DNA from: Modestobacter versicolor
Lineage (GTDB): Bacteria; Actinomycetota; Actinomycetes; Mycobacteriales; Geodermatophilaceae
Direction: 5' to 3'
DNA: 64,000 nucleotides
Assembly: GCF_014195485.1 (NCBI RefSeq)
Contig: NZ_JACIBU010000002.1
Coordinates: 310,001 to 374,000, forward strand
How positions within the stretch are numbered: position 1 is the first letter of the stretch; every line of letters begins with the position of its first letter. The translations under genes and the position numbers were made by a program. Below, in pieces: positions 57,335 through 62,295 of this stretch. The notes under the pieces are model-generated. The model was not told the DNA's origin. It saw only the letters and a program-made list of their open reading frames with translations, and searched no databases.

Positions 57335-58816
57335 TCAGCGGCGGGGACGACCGGCGCCGGGGAGGAGGAGCACCGCCTCGGTGCCCGGCCCGCCGTTCGC
57401 CGGCCGGCCCATGTCCAGGCCGCCGTGCAGCTCGCTGGTCACCAGCGTGCGCACGATCTGCAGCCCCAGCCCGGTGCTCGCCGCCGGGTCGAAGTCGACC
57501 GGCAGGCCCTGGCCGTCGTCGCGCACCCGCACCACCAGGTCGTCGCCGTCCCGCTCGGCGCCCAGCACGATCGTCCCCGGCTCGCTGTCCGGGAAGGCGT
57601 GCATGGCGGCGTTCTGCAGCAGCTCGGTCACCGCCATCACCAGCGGGGTCGCCACCGCTGCGGGCAGCTCGCCGAAGGCGCCGCTGCGGGTGAACCGGGC
57701 CGGGCGGCCGACCGCGGTGACGTCACCGAGCATCGGCAGCACCTGGTCCAGGACGTCGTCCACGTCGACGACGTCCTCCCGGCTGCCGGCCAGCGTCTCG
57801 TGCACGACGGCGATCGACGCCACCCGGCGCACCGACTCCTCCAGCGCCGCCCGGGCCGCGGGCTCGGTCATCCGGCGGGCCTGCAGCCGCAGCAGCGCCG
57901 CGACGGTCTGCAGGTTGTTCTTCACCCGGTGGTGGATCTCCCGGATGGTGGCGTCCTTGGTCATCAGCGCGCGGTCCCGGCGGCGGACGTCGGTGACGTC
58001 GCGGACCAGCACCAGCGCGCCCTCCTCGCCGCCGGGGGCCTGCAGCGGCAGCGCGCGCACCAGCATCGTGGCGGCGTCGTTCTCCACGTCCATCGGCTCG
58101 GGGAACCGGCCGGCCACCGCGGCGTTGATGCTCGCCGCGACCGCCTCGCCCGGGACCAGGTCGGCGGAGACGCTGCGGGTGACCTCGGCCAGGTCGGAGC
58201 CGACCACGTCGCCGATCACGCCCATCCGGCGGTAGGCCGACAGCGCGTTGGGGCTGGCGTAGACGGCCCGCCCGGCGGCGTCCAGCCGTACCAGCCCGTC
58301 GCCGACCCGCGGGCTCATCTCGGCGTCCTCGAGCATCCGCGGCGGGAACGTGCCGGCGGCGACCATCAGCGACAGGTCGGCGGCGATGTCGAGGTAGGTC
58401 AGCTCCAGGGTCGACGGCGACCGGGTCGCCGCCAGGTTGGTGTCCTTGGCGAGGACCGCGACCACCACGCCGTCGTGCCGCACCGGGATCACCTCCCGGC
58501 GACGGGGGAACGCCCCGGACCAGTCCGGCTCCCCCTCGGTGATCGGCCGCTCCTCCTGGTGGGCCCGCACCAACGGCTCGGCGGCGACGCCGGTCGCCTC
58601 GGTGCCGATCAGGTCGTCGGGCTGGCTGGTGGGGGCGGTGAGCGGGCGCACCTGGGCCACGCACCACCAGGCACCGCTCTGCAGCGGCACCCACAGCGTG
58701 AGGTCGGCGAAGGAGAGATCCGCCAGCAGCTGCCAGTCGGCCACCAGGCGCCGCGCGTGGTCGACCTGGGACGGGCTGGCCGAGCCGCGGGTGAGACGTT
58801 CGGACAGGCTGCTCAT
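57335..58816 (-). CDS. pdtaS: Sensor histidine kinase, PdtaS type (HisKA_2/HWE-like)
   Basis: 493 residues from the ATG at 58816, 10 nt after a TAGGCT box (58827-58832). Soluble: N-terminal GAF-like domain (about 1-150), PAS domain (about 175-280), then the HisKA_2 motif EIHHRVKNNLQTVAALLRLQ and HATPase with GLGLQIVRTLV. In M. tuberculosis PdtaS is constitutively active, is inhibited by copper and nitric oxide, and signals to the RNA-binding regulator PdtaR. It is also next to whiB1 there. Confidence 0.93.
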   Translation of the reverse strand: MSSLSERLTRGSASPSQVDHARRLVADWQLLADLSFADLTLWVPLQSGAWWCVAQVRPLTAPTSQPDDLIGTEATGVAAEPLVRAHQEERPITEGEPDWSGAFPRRREVIPVRHDGVVVAVLAKDTNLAATRSPSTLELTYLDIAADLSLMVAAGTFPPRMLEDAEMSPRVGDGLVRLDAAGRAVYASPNALSAYRRMGVIGDVVGSDLAEVTRSVSADLVPGEAVAASINAAVAGRFPEPMDVENDAATMLVRALPLQAPGGEEGALVLVRDVTDVRRRDRALMTKDATIREIHHRVKNNLQTVAALLRLQARRMTEPAARAALEESVRRVASIAVVHETLAGSREDVVDVDDVLDQVLPMLGDVTAVGRPARFTRSGAFGELPAAVATPLVMAVTELLQNAAMHAFPDSEPGTIVLGAERDGDDLVVRVRDDGQGLPVDFDPAASTGLGLQIVRTLVTSELHGGLDMGRPANGGPGTEAVLLLPGAGRPRR

Positions 58817-58908
58817 GGTGACCGCGAGCCTAGTCAACGGACCTCGCCGCCCCCCGACCCTCGCGAGCTCGGGCCGGCCCCTGCGGCGAGGCCGACTAAC
58901 CTGCCGAC

Positions 58909-59403
58909 GTGCTGCACGCCGTCACGATCGACCGCGCGACCCCGGCGGACTTCGACCGGATCGCCGAGCTGACCGTCGGCGTCTACACCGACGAGGACCT
59001 CGTCTCCCCCGGCTACGTGCCCCAGCTGGCCGACGTGGCCGGCCGCGCGGACCGCGCCGAGCTGCTGGTCGCCCGGGACACCACCGGCCGGGTGGTGGGC
59101 AGCGTCGCCCTGGTGCTCGCCGGCGACTTCGGCGAGGTGACCCGCTCGGCGGACGAGGCCGCGTTCCGGATGCTCGCGGTCGACGGCGCGGCCCGCGGGC
59201 AGGGCGTCGGCGAGGCGCTGGTGCGCGAGTGCCTGGCCCGGGCGCGCGCCGCCGGCAAGCGGTGGATGGTGCTCTCCACCGGCACGCGGATGACCGCGGC
59301 GCACCGGCTCTACGAGCGGCTGGGCTTCACCCGGCTGCCGGAGCGGGACTGGACACCGGTGCCCGGCATCGACCTGCGGGTCTACGCCCTGGAGCTGGCC
59401 TGA
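58909..59403 (+). CDS. GNAT family N-acetyltransferase
   Basis: 164 residues from GTG, 6 nt after TAACCT (58897-58902). Motif A is FRMLAVDGAARGQGVGEALV, followed by HRLYERLGFTRLPERDW. No specific substrate. It is transcribed against its neighbours on both sides and is an extra relative to the M. tuberculosis order. Confidence 0.9.
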   Translation: MLHAVTIDRATPADFDRIAELTVGVYTDEDLVSPGYVPQLADVAGRADRAELLVARDTTGRVVGSVALVLAGDFGEVTRSADEAAFRMLAVDGAARGQGVGEALVRECLARARAAGKRWMVLSTGTRMTAAHRLYERLGFTRLPERDWTPVPGIDLRVYALELA

Positions 59404-59413
59404 CGGTCGGGTG

Positions 59414-59638
59414 TCAGGCGGGGACGACGGTGGCGATGAGGTCGCCCTCCTGGAGCACCTCGCCCTCCACCACGTGCAGCTCGCCCACGGTGCCGGCGCG
59501 CTCGGTGAGCACCGGGATCTCCATCTTCATCGACTCGAGGATCACCAGCGTGTCACCGGCGGCCACCTCGGTGCCGGGGGTCACCAGGACCTTCCACACG
59601 CTGGAGACCATCTCGGCGTGGATCTCCTCGACCGCCAC
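59414..59638 (-). CDS. Stand-alone biotinyl/lipoyl carrier protein (TB7.3-like)
   Basis: 74 residues, a single biotinyl domain. The modified Lys38 is in VILESMKMEIPV, the biotin-type EAMKM/ESMKM motif. Equivalent to TB7.3 (Rv3221c) of M. tuberculosis, which stands in the same place between pdtaS and the sigH locus and is of uncertain function. It is encoded 101 bases downstream of the biotin carboxylase-like gene on the same strand, so the two may work together. Confidence 0.93.
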   Translation of the reverse strand: MAVEEIHAEMVSSVWKVLVTPGTEVAAGDTLVILESMKMEIPVLTERAGTVGELHVVEGEVLQEGDLIATVVPA

Positions 59639-59739
59639 CGGCGCCTCCTGTCTTCCCGACCGACCCGCCGGGACCCGGCGGTCTGCTCATCCAAGCACGC
59701 GGACGCCGCCGCTCCGCAGCGCCGCGGGCGGCCGTGGTG

Positions 59740-60792
59740 TCACGAGCAGTCGGGGACCAGCGACCCGGCGATCCGGTGCAGCACGCTGCAGACCGCGCTG
59801 CCGTCGTGCGGCACGCCGGTCTCCGGCAGCCCGGTGAGCACGTCGGTGGCGGCGCTGGCCGCCCGGGCCGTGCTCGGGGCACCGGCGCTGACCGTGGCCA
59901 GCAGCGCGTCGTACCAGCCGTCCAGCCGGTCGCCGGGGTCGTAGCCGCTCACCGCGACCACCTCGGCGCCGAGCAGCGGCCGGCGACCGCTGCGGGCCGG
60001 CACGTCCGGCAGCCGCCCGGTCACCCGGCCCGCGGTGCCCGGCGGCAGCGTGGAGCGCAGCTGCACCGCGACGGCCGCGCGCGGGGTGCCCGGGGTCGCC
60101 GGCGGCTCCACCGGCTGCCCGGCGGCGCTGCGCAGGGTGAGCTCGACGGCGTCCACGCTGTGCGCGCGCTCCAGCACCGCCATGTCCAGCGAGAAGCCGG
60201 CCGAGACCTCGGCCAGCTCGCCGTCGGGGTCGATGCCCACGGTGACCAGCCCGCGCCAGCCCAGCTCGGGCAGCCGGCGGGCGGCGGCGGGCAGCGGGCC
60301 CAGGCCGGCCGGCGGCGTCCAGGACACCCGCGGGGTGCCGCCGGCGCGGTCGCGGATCACCGGCGTCACGTGGTGCAGGCCCTCGGCGGTCACCCAGGCC
60401 AGGAAGCCGCGCTCGCTGGCCGGCTCGACGCCGTCACCACCGAGGCGCTCCAGCACCTCCGCGTCCGGCCCCACCCACAGCAGCCCGGCCTCGGTCACCT
60501 CGGCCGCCAGCCGGGCGTTGCCGGCCAGCGCCGGCGGCACGGGCAGCACCGCGCTGACCCGGGTGCGGCGCGCGGCCTCCACGATCCGCCGGACGTCGAG
60601 GTAGGACTCGGTGGCCGCCGCGGGGCCGAGCAGCACCGACTCGTCGGCCATCCGGACGTGCCGGGCGTCCTGCTCGGTCTCCGAGCACACCGCCACCGAC
60701 TTGACCCCGAGCCGGGCGCACGCCCGGATCACCGCACAGGCCATCGGCCCACGTCCGGCCACCAGCACGCTCTCCACGGCCGCCTGGACCAC
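59740..60792 (-). CDS. Degenerate biotin carboxylase-like protein lacking the ATP-grasp core
   Basis: 350 residues, GTG start with GGGGGG upstream. Residues about 8-118 match the biotin carboxylase N domain (ESVLVAGRGPMACAVIRACA; VKSVAVCSETEQDARHVRMA; ADESVLLGP). Residues about 195-245 resemble the end of ATP-grasp, and 250-345 the BC C domain (DRLDGWYDALLATVSAG). Compared with AccC (about 449 residues), roughly 100 residues with the Gly-rich ATP loop are absent, ANRGEIA reads AGRGPMA, HPGYGFLSEN reads LPVPPALAGN, and the ENxRxQVEH catalytic segment reads AEVSAGFSLDMAV. It should be catalytically dead. Its neighbour encodes a free biotin carrier. Confidence 0.8.
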   Translation of the reverse strand: MVQAAVESVLVAGRGPMACAVIRACARLGVKSVAVCSETEQDARHVRMADESVLLGPAAATESYLDVRRIVEAARRTRVSAVLPVPPALAGNARLAAEVTEAGLLWVGPDAEVLERLGGDGVEPASERGFLAWVTAEGLHHVTPVIRDRAGGTPRVSWTPPAGLGPLPAAARRLPELGWRGLVTVGIDPDGELAEVSAGFSLDMAVLERAHSVDAVELTLRSAAGQPVEPPATPGTPRAAVAVQLRSTLPPGTAGRVTGRLPDVPARSGRRPLLGAEVVAVSGYDPGDRLDGWYDALLATVSAGAPSTARAASAATDVLTGLPETGVPHDGSAVCSVLHRIAGSLVPDCS

Positions 60793-61007
60793 GTCGTCCC
60801 CCCGTTCCGACTCACGCCGGTGTCGTGCCCCGCCACCCCGGACCGGTGCGTGTGGGCGTCCTGCACCACCGCACGTACCCGCTCCGGCCCGTGAGACGCT
60901 TGCGGGGTCAGCTTGGCCGGTCCGCGGGTGCTCCGCATCCTCCGCCGGTCCCCATCAGCAGCCGTGCCCGCAGGGCCCGGCACCCCGAGCACGAGAGGAG
61001 GGCAGCG

Positions 61008-61082
61008 ATGTCCAAGCGTGGACGCAAGCGGCGCGCCCGCAAGAAGAGCGGCGCCAACCACGGCAAGCGCCCCAACGCGTGA
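61008..61082 (+). CDS. 50S ribosomal protein bL37
   Basis: Only 24 residues: MSKRGRKRRARKKSGANHGK then RPNA. Lys/Arg-rich throughout, with the conserved ANHGKRPNA end of actinobacterial bL37. AGGAGG lies 7 nt before the ATG. The gene is too short for routine callers and is often missed. It converges with rsrA, with an 11-bp hairpin between them. Confidence 0.9.
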   Translation: MSKRGRKRRARKKSGANHGKRPNA

Positions 61083-61088
61083 GCCAGG

Positions 61089-61119
61089 GCCCCGCCGCCG
61101 CCTCAGGAGGCGGCGGGGC
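61089..61119. terminator. Hairpin between bL37 and rsrA
   Basis: GCCCCGCCGCC (61089-61099) pairs with GGCGGCGGGGC (61109-61119), a 9-base loop. The stem overlaps the rsrA stop (61103-61105). Confidence 0.65.
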
Positions 61120-61459
61120 GCTCCACCGGGCTCTCGGTGGTGACGGTCTCGACGGTGGTCCGCTCCACCCACACCTGCGTGCCGTCCTCCTCGAACGAGA
61201 CGCTGGTCAGCTGGACCTTGATCCGCTCGCGCAGGCCGACCGGCGTGGGGTCACCGCCGCAGCGGCGCCGCACCAGGGCCTTGAACTCCTGCTCGATCCC
61301 GAACTGCCGCAGGCACGGCGAGCAGTCCTCGAGGTGCTCGGCGATGACCGCCCGCCGGGCGTCGTCGGTCTCGTGGTCGAGGAACTCGAACACGTGCGAG
61401 AGGACGTCGTCGCACGAGGTGATCTCGTCGTCGTGCAGCTCGTGAGCCTCGTTGCTCAT
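61103..61459 (-). CDS. rsrA: Zinc-binding anti-sigma factor (RsrA/RshA type)
   Basis: 118 residues. The HCC zinc motif is His42-x3-Cys46-x2-Cys49 (EHLEDCSPC), with Cys16 as fourth ligand: the spacing of S. coelicolor RsrA. It holds SigR/SigH inactive until disulfide stress removes zinc. Residues beyond 90 form a Thr/Glu-rich tail. The ATG overlaps the sigma stop by four bases (ATGA), giving balanced synthesis. Confidence 0.95.
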
Positions 61460-62295
61460 GAGTGCGCCTCCTCGGGGGCCCCGGCACGGACGAAGCCGCG
61501 CTCGCGGGCGTAGTCGGCCAGCAGCTTCTGCAGACCGCGGCGACCGCGGTGCAGGCGGGACATCACCGTGCCGATGGGCGTGCCCATGATCTCGGCGATC
61601 TCCTTGTAGGCGAACCCCTCCACGTCGGCGAGGTACACCGCGAGCCGGAAGTCCTCCGGCAGCTGCTGGAGGGCCTCCTTGATGTCGGAGTCCGGCAGGT
61701 GGTCCAGCGCCTCGATCTCCGCCGAGCGCAGCCCGCTGGAGGTGTGCTCCTCCGCGGCGTAGAGCTGCCAGTCCTGCACCTGCTCGGTGGGGTACTGCTG
61801 CGGCTGCCGCTGCTTCTTGCGGTAGCTGTTGATGTAGGTGTTCGTCAGGATCCGGTACAGCCAGGCCTTGAGGTTCGTGCCCTCGGCGAACTGGTGGAAC
61901 GCGGAGTAGGCCTTGACGAAGGTCTCCTGGACGAGGTCCTCGGCGTCGGCGGGGTTGCGGGTCATCCGCAGCGCCGCCGGGTACAGCTGGTCCAGGTAGG
62001 GCAGGGCGTCCCGCTCGAACCGGGCGTCGCGCTGGGCGCGGCTCTCGGCCTCGGCGGCGCGGCTGCCGTCGGCGCGCGCCTCCGGGGTCTCCTCGACCAC
62101 CGGCGCGGCGATCGCCTCGGCGGGGGTGTCGATCGTGGGCTCCTCGGGCACCGACCGTCCTCTCTGCGGCGCCCGGGAACGGGCCACCACGTCGGTCGAT
62201 CCTAGCCGGGTGCGGTCAGGTCGGCCGGGGGGACGGCGGGAGGGCGCGGAGCCGCGCGCGCTGCGCGCCGGGGCGCTCGGGACTGTGCTGCTCAC
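61456..62295 (-). CDS. sigH: ECF sigma factor SigH/SigR, with probable long isoform
   Basis: 279 residues from the GTG at 62295, or 231 from the GTG at 62151 (GAGAGGA upstream). Region 2 has [20 protein letters not shown] and region 4 [20 protein letters not shown]. It directs the thiol-oxidative stress response. The long start stands 6 nt after a SigH-type promoter, the short one follows a housekeeping -10 and its own ribosome binding site. The first 48 residues are basic and disordered, like the 55-residue extension of the unstable sigma-R' of S. coelicolor. Confidence 0.93.
62199..62204 (-). promoter_or_regulatory. Housekeeping-type sigH promoter (-10 TAGGAT)
   Basis: On the minus strand TAGGAT stands 47 nt before the internal GTG at 62151, which has GAGAGGA as ribosome binding site. 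Transcripts from here could make only the short sigma form. Confidence 0.5.

What the first reader, a model, noticed from the sequence alone, without database searches (positions are those of the whole stretch)
59414..60792. Catalytically dead biotin carboxylase-like protein beside a free biotinyl carrier in the SigH locus
The 350-residue protein keeps the biotin carboxylase N and C domains but lacks the glycine-rich ATP loop and about 100 residues of the ATP-grasp core. The catalytic ENxRxQVEH segment is replaced. Downstream on the same strand is a lone 74-residue carrier with an intact ESMKM lysine. The TB7.3 carrier of M. tuberculosis, in the same position, has no known partner. A pseudo-carboxylase that binds or senses the biotinylated carrier, possibly as part of the redox stress response, would be a new use of this fold.
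Basis: partly seen in the sequence, partly recalled or inferred. Interest (0 to 1): 0.75.

Follow-up and report, generated by a model that had tools for sequence, protein, structure and literature searches.

The report
Conserved dead biotin carboxylase beside carrier
Beside a small biotin-carrying protein, soil actinobacteria keep a biotin carboxylase that has lost its engine yet is still guarded by selection, and related bacteria keep the working enzyme in the same place, which points to the lost partner of an orphan carrier also known from mycobacteria.

Summary
The 350-aa ORF (59740-60792, -) is a biotin carboxylase (BC) relative without the glycine-rich loop, the ATP-grasp core and nearly all catalytic residues; 101 bp downstream lies a 74-aa carrier with an intact ESMKM lysine. 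It is not a frameshift: 92 of 96 family genomes match it with no stops, and the other four carry a shorter degenerate BC at the same place. It is not decaying: median dN/dS is 0.22, against 0.19 in intact relatives, and 32 sites fixed in intact BCs are fixed to another residue here. AlphaFold and Foldseek give a BC fold. New: Streptosporangiaceae and other actinobacteria keep a full-length BC with an intact active site upstream of the same carrier (33 of 80 named loci), so TB7.3-type carriers look like the remaining half of a BC/carrier pair. Best reading: a neofunctionalised pseudoenzyme, probably still handling the carrier. Against that: two of 96 genomes keep it but lack the carrier. The redox link is only positional: no SigH-type site in 27 of 27 upstream regions. 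No function was tested.

The parts
59740..60792 (-). pseudo-biotin-carboxylase, 350 aa: BC N domain (res 6-118), shortened middle (119-192) in place of the ATP-grasp core, remnant of the ATP-grasp C-subdomain and BC C-terminal part (193-350)
59414..59638 (-). lone biotinyl carrier, 74 aa, NF004547 (TB7.3-type), ESMKM motif
59525..59527 (-). codon of the lysine (K38) expected to carry biotin
   Evidence: sequence
60169..60261 (-). residues 178-208, remodelled former active-site segment; E195 (=E288 of E. coli BC) kept, G186, G199 and D203 in place of E276, R292 and E296
60793..61007 (.). divergent intergenic region upstream of the pseudo-BC gene and of a 24-aa gene
60890..60920 (.). block conserved in most of 27 relatives (GCTGACC..CAAG..TCTCACG read on the - strand), possible promoter; not visible in L133
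61008..61082 (+). 24-aa basic protein (small ribosomal-protein-like; the name bL37 is recalled, not tested), between rsrA and the pseudo-BC gene on the other strand
61103..61459 (-). RsrA-type anti-sigma factor
   Evidence: TIGR03988 4.1e-26
61456..62295 (-). SigH/SigR-type sigma factor
   Evidence: TIGR02947 1.8e-108
58909..59403 (+). GNAT acetyltransferase, convergent with the carrier gene, part of the conserved neighbourhood
57335..58837 (-). PdtaS-like histidine kinase, part of the conserved neighbourhood
   Evidence: PF12282 2.5e-40

Best explanation
The gene is a pseudoenzyme descended from a stand-alone biotin carboxylase that once worked with the neighbouring carrier (inferred from the intact pair kept at the same place in other families). 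In the window's family, whose named members are Geodermatophilaceae, the ATP-grasp core was deleted and the active site rebuilt and fixed again (shown by comparison). ATP-driven carboxylation of biotin is therefore not expected (follows from known BC chemistry). The protein most likely still docks with the biotinylated carrier, or with the BC or CT that uses it, as a non-catalytic scaffold or gate that decides when and by which enzyme the carrier is charged (inferred). This resembles plant BADC proteins, carrier homologues without biotin that take part in assembly or regulation of acetyl-CoA carboxylase.
For: Homology and fold: N domain; AlphaFold2 pLDDT 87.1, pTM 0.89 with 33 rows; the 50 listed PDB matches are all biotin carboxylases or enzymes that contain one, best E 9.9e-27. 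A pseudo-only alignment of 7 rows gives most of the same elements at lower confidence (pLDDT 68.6, res 38-63 and 249-297 poor) and again only such enzymes in the 50 listed rows. Partner: 40 of 40 full-length BCs from carrier loci keep K116, K159, GGGG, H209, E211, Q233, K238, E276, E288, N290, R292, Q294, V295, E296, H297 and R338 (H236 in 36 of 40), and in 34 of 38 loci the aligned BC ends 27-126 nt before the aligned carrier. Constraint: 92 of 96 family genomes, 0 stops; median dN/dS 0.22 overall and 0.105 in the new middle segment, the lowest of the three parts, against 0.19 for intact Nonomuraea BCs; 121 invariant sites in 36 sequences, with the best conserved blocks at the former active site and in the C part; 32 sites fixed (97% or more) in both groups but to different residues, 37 fixed alike, 41 fixed sites deleted. 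Carrier: the lysine and SMKMEIPV in 139 of 139 carriers tallied, the E before it in 138; carriers beside the pseudo-BC share shifts (R7H, A12S, N13S, D60E in 34 of 34). Pair kept: carrier in 94 of 96 genomes.
Against: Two genomes, G381 and G175, keep the pseudo-BC but have no carrier beside it and none at E <= 1e-18 elsewhere (the best match in G175 is 1.1e-15), and their pseudo-BC shows no loss of conserved residues (0 and 2 unique departures). The carrier's changes belong to one clade, so they are one observation, not 34; the same letters occur in a few other carriers. Nothing here shows physical binding. 58 of the 139 carriers with a state stand near RsrA without a BC, so the carrier does not need a local partner. 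Six of the 32 re-fixed sites lie in the middle, where the alignment is unsure.
Confidence: 0.45

Rival explanations
1. The pseudo-BC has left the carrier behind: the rebuilt pocket binds a small ligand, or the protein pairs with another BC (such as AccA), and the carrier next door is only a shared ancestral neighbour.
For: Two genomes lost the carrier but kept a well conserved pseudo-BC. The former active site is among the best conserved blocks: mean share of the commonest residue 0.95 in res 199-213 and 0.93 in res 79-93. The own genome holds four other BCs and five CT domains.
Against: At least 91 of 96 genomes keep both genes, 92 with pseudo-BC and 94 with carrier, and they are adjacent in the family loci read except L205 and L206; the carrier next to the pseudo-BC shares clade-specific shifts.
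Confidence: 0.3
2. A slow evolutionary relic: BC activity became dispensable and the gene is being dismantled, with several stages still visible.
For: Degenerate forms of different length exist: 381 aa (L038), 352 (L035), 273-313 (L207-L210), about 282 (L094, start unsure), and many loci have no BC at all.
Against: 0 stops in 92 genomes, dN/dS 0.22, 32 re-fixed sites, 121 invariant sites.
Confidence: 0.1
3. A new enzyme: the rebuilt site has a different activity on biotin, carboxybiotin or another substrate, without ATP.
For: E195 (=E288) and R246 (=R338) are kept in 34 of 34 core sequences within a fixed new site.
Against: No catalytic precedent known to me; the R338 equivalent is Ala in L207-L210 and the E288 equivalent is not kept in L038 or L207-L210.
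Confidence: 0.1
4. A redox-linked sensor under SigH/RsrA.
For: Position downstream of rsrA and sigH in the family loci that reach that far.
Against: A divergent 24-aa gene lies between; no GGAA-N17..21-GTT site within 330 nt upstream in 27 of 27 loci.
Confidence: 0.05

Closest known systems
Biotin carboxylase AccC / BC domain of AccA (E. coli AccC; M. tuberculosis AccA3, 5mlk; M. smegmatis LCC, 9yx1)
   Same: N domain by sequence; overall fold in prediction (TMq 0.74-0.81 in the 50 listed rows)
   Different: no ATP-grasp B subdomain, no glycine-rich loop, catalytic residues gone except the E288 and R338 equivalents
TB7.3 (Rv3221c; 'putative' carrier in PMC3048393, passages read) / NF004547 biotin-lipoyl carrier
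   Same: window carrier is above the NF004547 cut-off, ESMKM intact; RsrA-carrier-PdtaS order in many families. That NF004547 includes TB7.3 and that Rv3221c lies beside rshA and pdtaS is recalled; no M. tuberculosis DNA was compared
   Different: here a pseudo-BC stands between RsrA and the carrier
B. subtilis BLAP (YngHB), passages of PMC4016012 read
   Same: lone small biotinylated carrier beside carboxylase genes; second-best NCBIfam match of the window carrier is NF006079 (its identity with BLAP is recalled)
   Different: there the neighbours are annotated as carboxylase subunits, proposed as methylcrotonyl-CoA carboxylase; here a CT gene lies near the carrier in only 1 of 131 loci scanned (L085)
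Plant BADC proteins, passages of PMC11926652 read
   Same: degenerate subunit homologue of a heteromeric acetyl-CoA carboxylase, kept as assembly factor (an inhibitor role is debated there)
   Different: BADC is a dead carrier, here the carrier is intact and the carboxylase is dead; analogy, not homology

Membership tests
Biotin carboxylase (active AccC) | N-terminal domain PF00289 | tested here: met
   1.4e-28
Biotin carboxylase (active AccC) | ATP-grasp domain with glycine-rich loop | tested here: not met
   no ATP-grasp family; glycine-loop columns empty in 34 of 34 core sequences; no ATP-grasp segment of an intact BC matches the window
Biotin carboxylase (active AccC) | catalytic residues K116, K159, H209, K238, E276, N290, R292, E296 | tested here: not met
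Biotin carboxylase (active AccC) | C-terminal domain PF02785 | tested here: inconclusive
   no Pfam hit in the window protein, own-genome search with PF02785 does not list it; fold and divergent relatives support it
Pseudoenzyme of biotin carboxylase | fold of the parent enzyme | tested here: met
   (predictions)
Pseudoenzyme of biotin carboxylase | catalytic residues missing in a gene kept by purifying selection | tested here: met
Pseudoenzyme of biotin carboxylase | non-catalytic function shown | not testable with these tools
   needs binding and deletion experiments
TB7.3-type carrier (NF004547) | profile score above cut-off | tested here: met
   109.6 bits against 75
TB7.3-type carrier (NF004547) | biotinylated lysine | not testable with these tools
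   motif present; modification needs an avidin blot or mass spectrometry
SigH/SigR regulon | GGAA-N17..21-GTT promoter upstream of the gene | tested here: not met
   0 of 27 upstream regions of 330 nt; consensus recalled, transcription from further upstream is not excluded
Plant BADC | carrier-like protein without the biotinyl lysine | tested here: not met
   the degenerate protein here is BC-like and the carrier keeps its lysine; analogy only

The most novel reading that the evidence does not exclude
A new class of pseudo-biotin-carboxylase: in several actinobacterial lineages the BC partner of the TB7.3-type carrier lost its ATP-grasp engine but kept, and re-fixed, the rest of its body, so that a carboxylating pair became a regulatory pair in which a dead carboxylase reads or gates the biotinylated carrier. 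Orphan TB7.3-type carriers elsewhere may work in the same non-carboxylating way.
Probability: 0.3. Interest if true: 0.78.

Novelty: new variant of a known kind. Interest (0 to 1): 0.56.

Why it matters
Dead homologues are known for many enzyme families. For biotin carboxylase I found none described in the searches made: 'biotin carboxylase' with 'pseudoenzyme' gave one paper, on a tubulin-ligase-like protein (listing), 'inactive biotin carboxylase' none, both in open-licence PubMed Central only. The comparison also gives the orphan TB7.3-type carrier a likely ancestral partner that can be cloned from Nonomuraea or Streptosporangium, which makes the question of what this carrier does testable in harmless organisms.

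Tried and rejected
Frameshift or assembly error: rejected, 92 of 96 genomes match with no stops. Pseudogene: rejected by dN/dS and re-fixed sites. Hidden ATP-grasp core elsewhere in the window: no tblastn match at 1e-3. A carboxyltransferase nearby that would name the substrate: the five CT proteins of the own genome (frames of 574, 540, 500, 525 and 582 aa) match only 1 of 131 relatives' loci, L085, and not the window (a first run had taken wrong frames for some of them and gave the same result); in L085, which is not a SigH locus, two genes with PF01039 (3.6e-40, 2.6e-63) follow the BC and carrier. Between RsrA and the BC of Nonomuraea jabiensis (L140) lie an NAD epimerase and two HD-domain proteins, and in one Frankiaceae MAG (L126) an enoyl-CoA hydratase sits between BC and carrier. 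SigH promoter: none. Number of origins of the degenerate forms: not resolved. The tree groups all of them, but they are long branches; holding L094 with the intact f10 BC L096 is not rejected (AU p 0.33), nor L038 outside the rest (p 0.37). dN/dS by Nei-Gojobori used 19 loci of the window's genus; pairs with pS outside 0.15-0.70 were dropped (166 of 171 pairs kept for the pseudo-BC). 'BC upstream' means within 4.5 kb on the same strand; loci cut by contig ends are counted as they stand. One search used E <= 1e-30 and so missed the four shorter forms, found by reading the loci. What I saw of papers with TB7.3 or Rv3221c (listings; passages) named no partner.

Full report
What is there. On the minus strand the window holds, in order of transcription, a SigH/SigR sigma factor (62295-61456), RsrA (61459-61103), a 350-aa ORF (60792-59740), a 74-aa carrier (59638-59414) and, beyond a convergent GNAT gene (58909-59403, +), a PdtaS-like kinase (58837-57335). 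A 24-aa basic protein gene (61008-61082, +) lies between rsrA and the 350-aa ORF on the other strand.

The 350-aa protein. Pfam finds only the BC N-terminal domain above its cut-off. Aligned with E. coli AccC (L191), 34 of 34 core sequences of the window's family have gaps at K116, GGGG163-166, H209 and K238 and other residues at E276, N290, R292, Q294, V295, E296 and H297; the equivalents of E288 and R338 are kept in 34 of 34 (two fragments, L033 and L034, are not counted).

Distribution. Of 96 near-complete genomes of the family, 92 have a match at E <= 1e-30 with no stop inside it; two of these matches are short and lie at contig ends (G406, G367), the other 89 besides the own genome are 69-89% identical. 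The remaining four (G029, G031, G404, G405) carry a shorter degenerate BC of 273-313 aa between RsrA and the carrier. The carrier is found in 94 of 96. In the two exceptions, G381 and G175, the pseudo-BC is intact while no carrier lies next to it. Named members with the pseudo-BC are Klenkia, Goekera, Trujillonella, Geodermatophilus and Blastococcus, so the window's family is taken to be Geodermatophilaceae; its genome itself is unnamed.

The lost partner. Reading the same locus elsewhere changed the picture. Of 80 named carrier loci, 33 have a full-length BC within 4.5 kb upstream on the same strand (29 of these with RsrA within 8 kb), 6 the pseudo-BC (all Geodermatophilaceae), 1 a BC cut by the contig end, and 40 no BC (37 of them with RsrA). 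Of 39 unnamed loci of the order, 5 have a full BC, 1 a degenerate one (L094) and 33 none, 12 of these 33 without RsrA in the stretch held. All 40 full-length BCs aligned keep the catalytic set listed above, with H236 replaced in four. In 34 of 38 loci the aligned BC ends 27-126 nt before the aligned carrier; the others are at 292, 1067, 2495 and 3778 nt. The simplest reading is that the carrier is one half of an old BC/carrier pair; many lineages lack the BC, the window's family kept a dead one. A CT gene near the carrier was found in 1 of 131 loci (L085), so the acceptor of the pair stays open.

Selection. In the window's genus median dN/dS is 0.22 for the pseudo-BC, 0.125 for the carrier, 0.165 for SigH, 0.164 for PdtaS, 0.28 for RsrA and 0.35 for the GNAT. 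Within the pseudo-BC the new middle segment (119-192) is the most constrained part (0.105), the N domain is at 0.18 and the C part at 0.30. Intact BCs of eight Nonomuraea loci give 0.19 (28 pairs). Comparing 19 pseudo and 39 intact sequences (97% or more alike within a group counts as fixed), 37 sites are fixed to the same residue, 32 are fixed to different residues and 41 fixed sites are deleted; six of the 32 lie in the middle, where the alignment is unsure. This pattern fits a protein that changed function and was then held, not decay.

Structure. AlphaFold2 with 33 rows (pseudo and intact) gives pLDDT 87.1 and pTM 0.89; with 7 pseudo-BC rows alone pLDDT 68.6 and pTM 0.73, with most of the same elements and poor stretches at 38-63 and 249-297. 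Foldseek shows only biotin carboxylases or enzymes that contain one in the 50 rows listed for each model. These are predictions.

The carrier. The lysine and SMKMEIPV are present in 139 of 139 carriers tallied, the preceding E in 138; 18 more with no state assigned were left out. The 34 carriers beside the pseudo-BC share R7H, A12S, N13S and D60E; the same letters occur in few of the other 105. This fits co-adaptation but is one clade.

Other degenerate forms. L038 (381 aa) still matches part of the ATP-grasp profile (PF02786 positions 93-208, 2.6e-17) but lacks the glycine-rich loop; L035, L207-L210 and L094 lack it too (no ATP-grasp family in the four of these that were scanned). The tree groups the degenerate forms, but long branches and two AU tests (p 0.33, 0.37) leave one or several origins open.

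Mechanism. Shown by comparison: homology, loss of the engine, constraint, linkage, and an intact enzyme in the same place elsewhere. Inferred: that the pair once carboxylated together and that the dead protein still handles the carrier as a scaffold or gate. Against it stand the two genomes without carrier. The redox role has no support beyond position.

Literature. Passages of PMC3048393 call TB7.3 a putative carrier; passages of PMC4016012 describe BLAP, a lone biotinylated carrier of B. subtilis; passages of PMC11926652 describe BADC, a carrier homologue without biotin that acts in assembly of plant acetyl-CoA carboxylase, an inhibitor role being debated. PMC4347857 has no occurrence of Rv3221. 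Searches for a dead biotin carboxylase, or for a BC together with sigR and rsrA, found nothing relevant in the library; a search for sigH, rshA and biotin listed 13 papers whose listing I saw, one of which (PMC11126594) I read in passages.

Verdict. Real, conserved, and more interesting than described: a neofunctionalised pseudo-biotin-carboxylase, and a likely ancestral partner of TB7.3-type carriers. Function is untested.

Noticed in passing
61008-61082 (+): A 24-aa basic protein gene, strongly conserved in the 27 loci aligned, lies between rsrA and the pseudo-BC gene on the opposite strand; by eye its reverse frame also appears in other families' loci.
   Followed up: partly
60890-60920: Block of about 30 bp conserved upstream of the pseudo-BC gene in most of 27 loci, shared with the divergent 24-aa gene; promoter type not identified.
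   Followed up: partly
58909-59403 (+): GNAT gene beside the carrier is kept in several families, in either orientation, and seems part of the old neighbourhood.
   Followed up: no
L085:3466-9999: In G139 (family f4) the BC and carrier lie beside two genes with a carboxyltransferase domain, away from SigH: the only such case in 131 loci, a hint that the pair can serve an acyl-CoA carboxylase.
   Followed up: partly
L126:8931-9704; L094; L097: An enoyl-CoA hydratase (L126, Pfam) and aminopeptidase-like genes (by eye) lie between BC and carrier, or before the carrier, in some lineages.
   Followed up: partly
L079, L081: A luciferase-like monooxygenase (by eye) stands between RsrA and carrier in two genomes of family f3.
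   Followed up: no
L149: A 3.9-kb contig titled Spirochaetaceae carries the actinobacterial BC-carrier-GNAT set; probably a mis-binned contig.
   Followed up: no
L205:4978-6455: The PdtaS gene of G381 matches in two overlapping frames, so that genome may hold sequence errors; no carrier fragment was found there all the same.
   Followed up: partly
genomes G036, G063, G071, G079 (family f3): These genomes hold two or more NF004547-type carriers above the cut-off.
   Followed up: no
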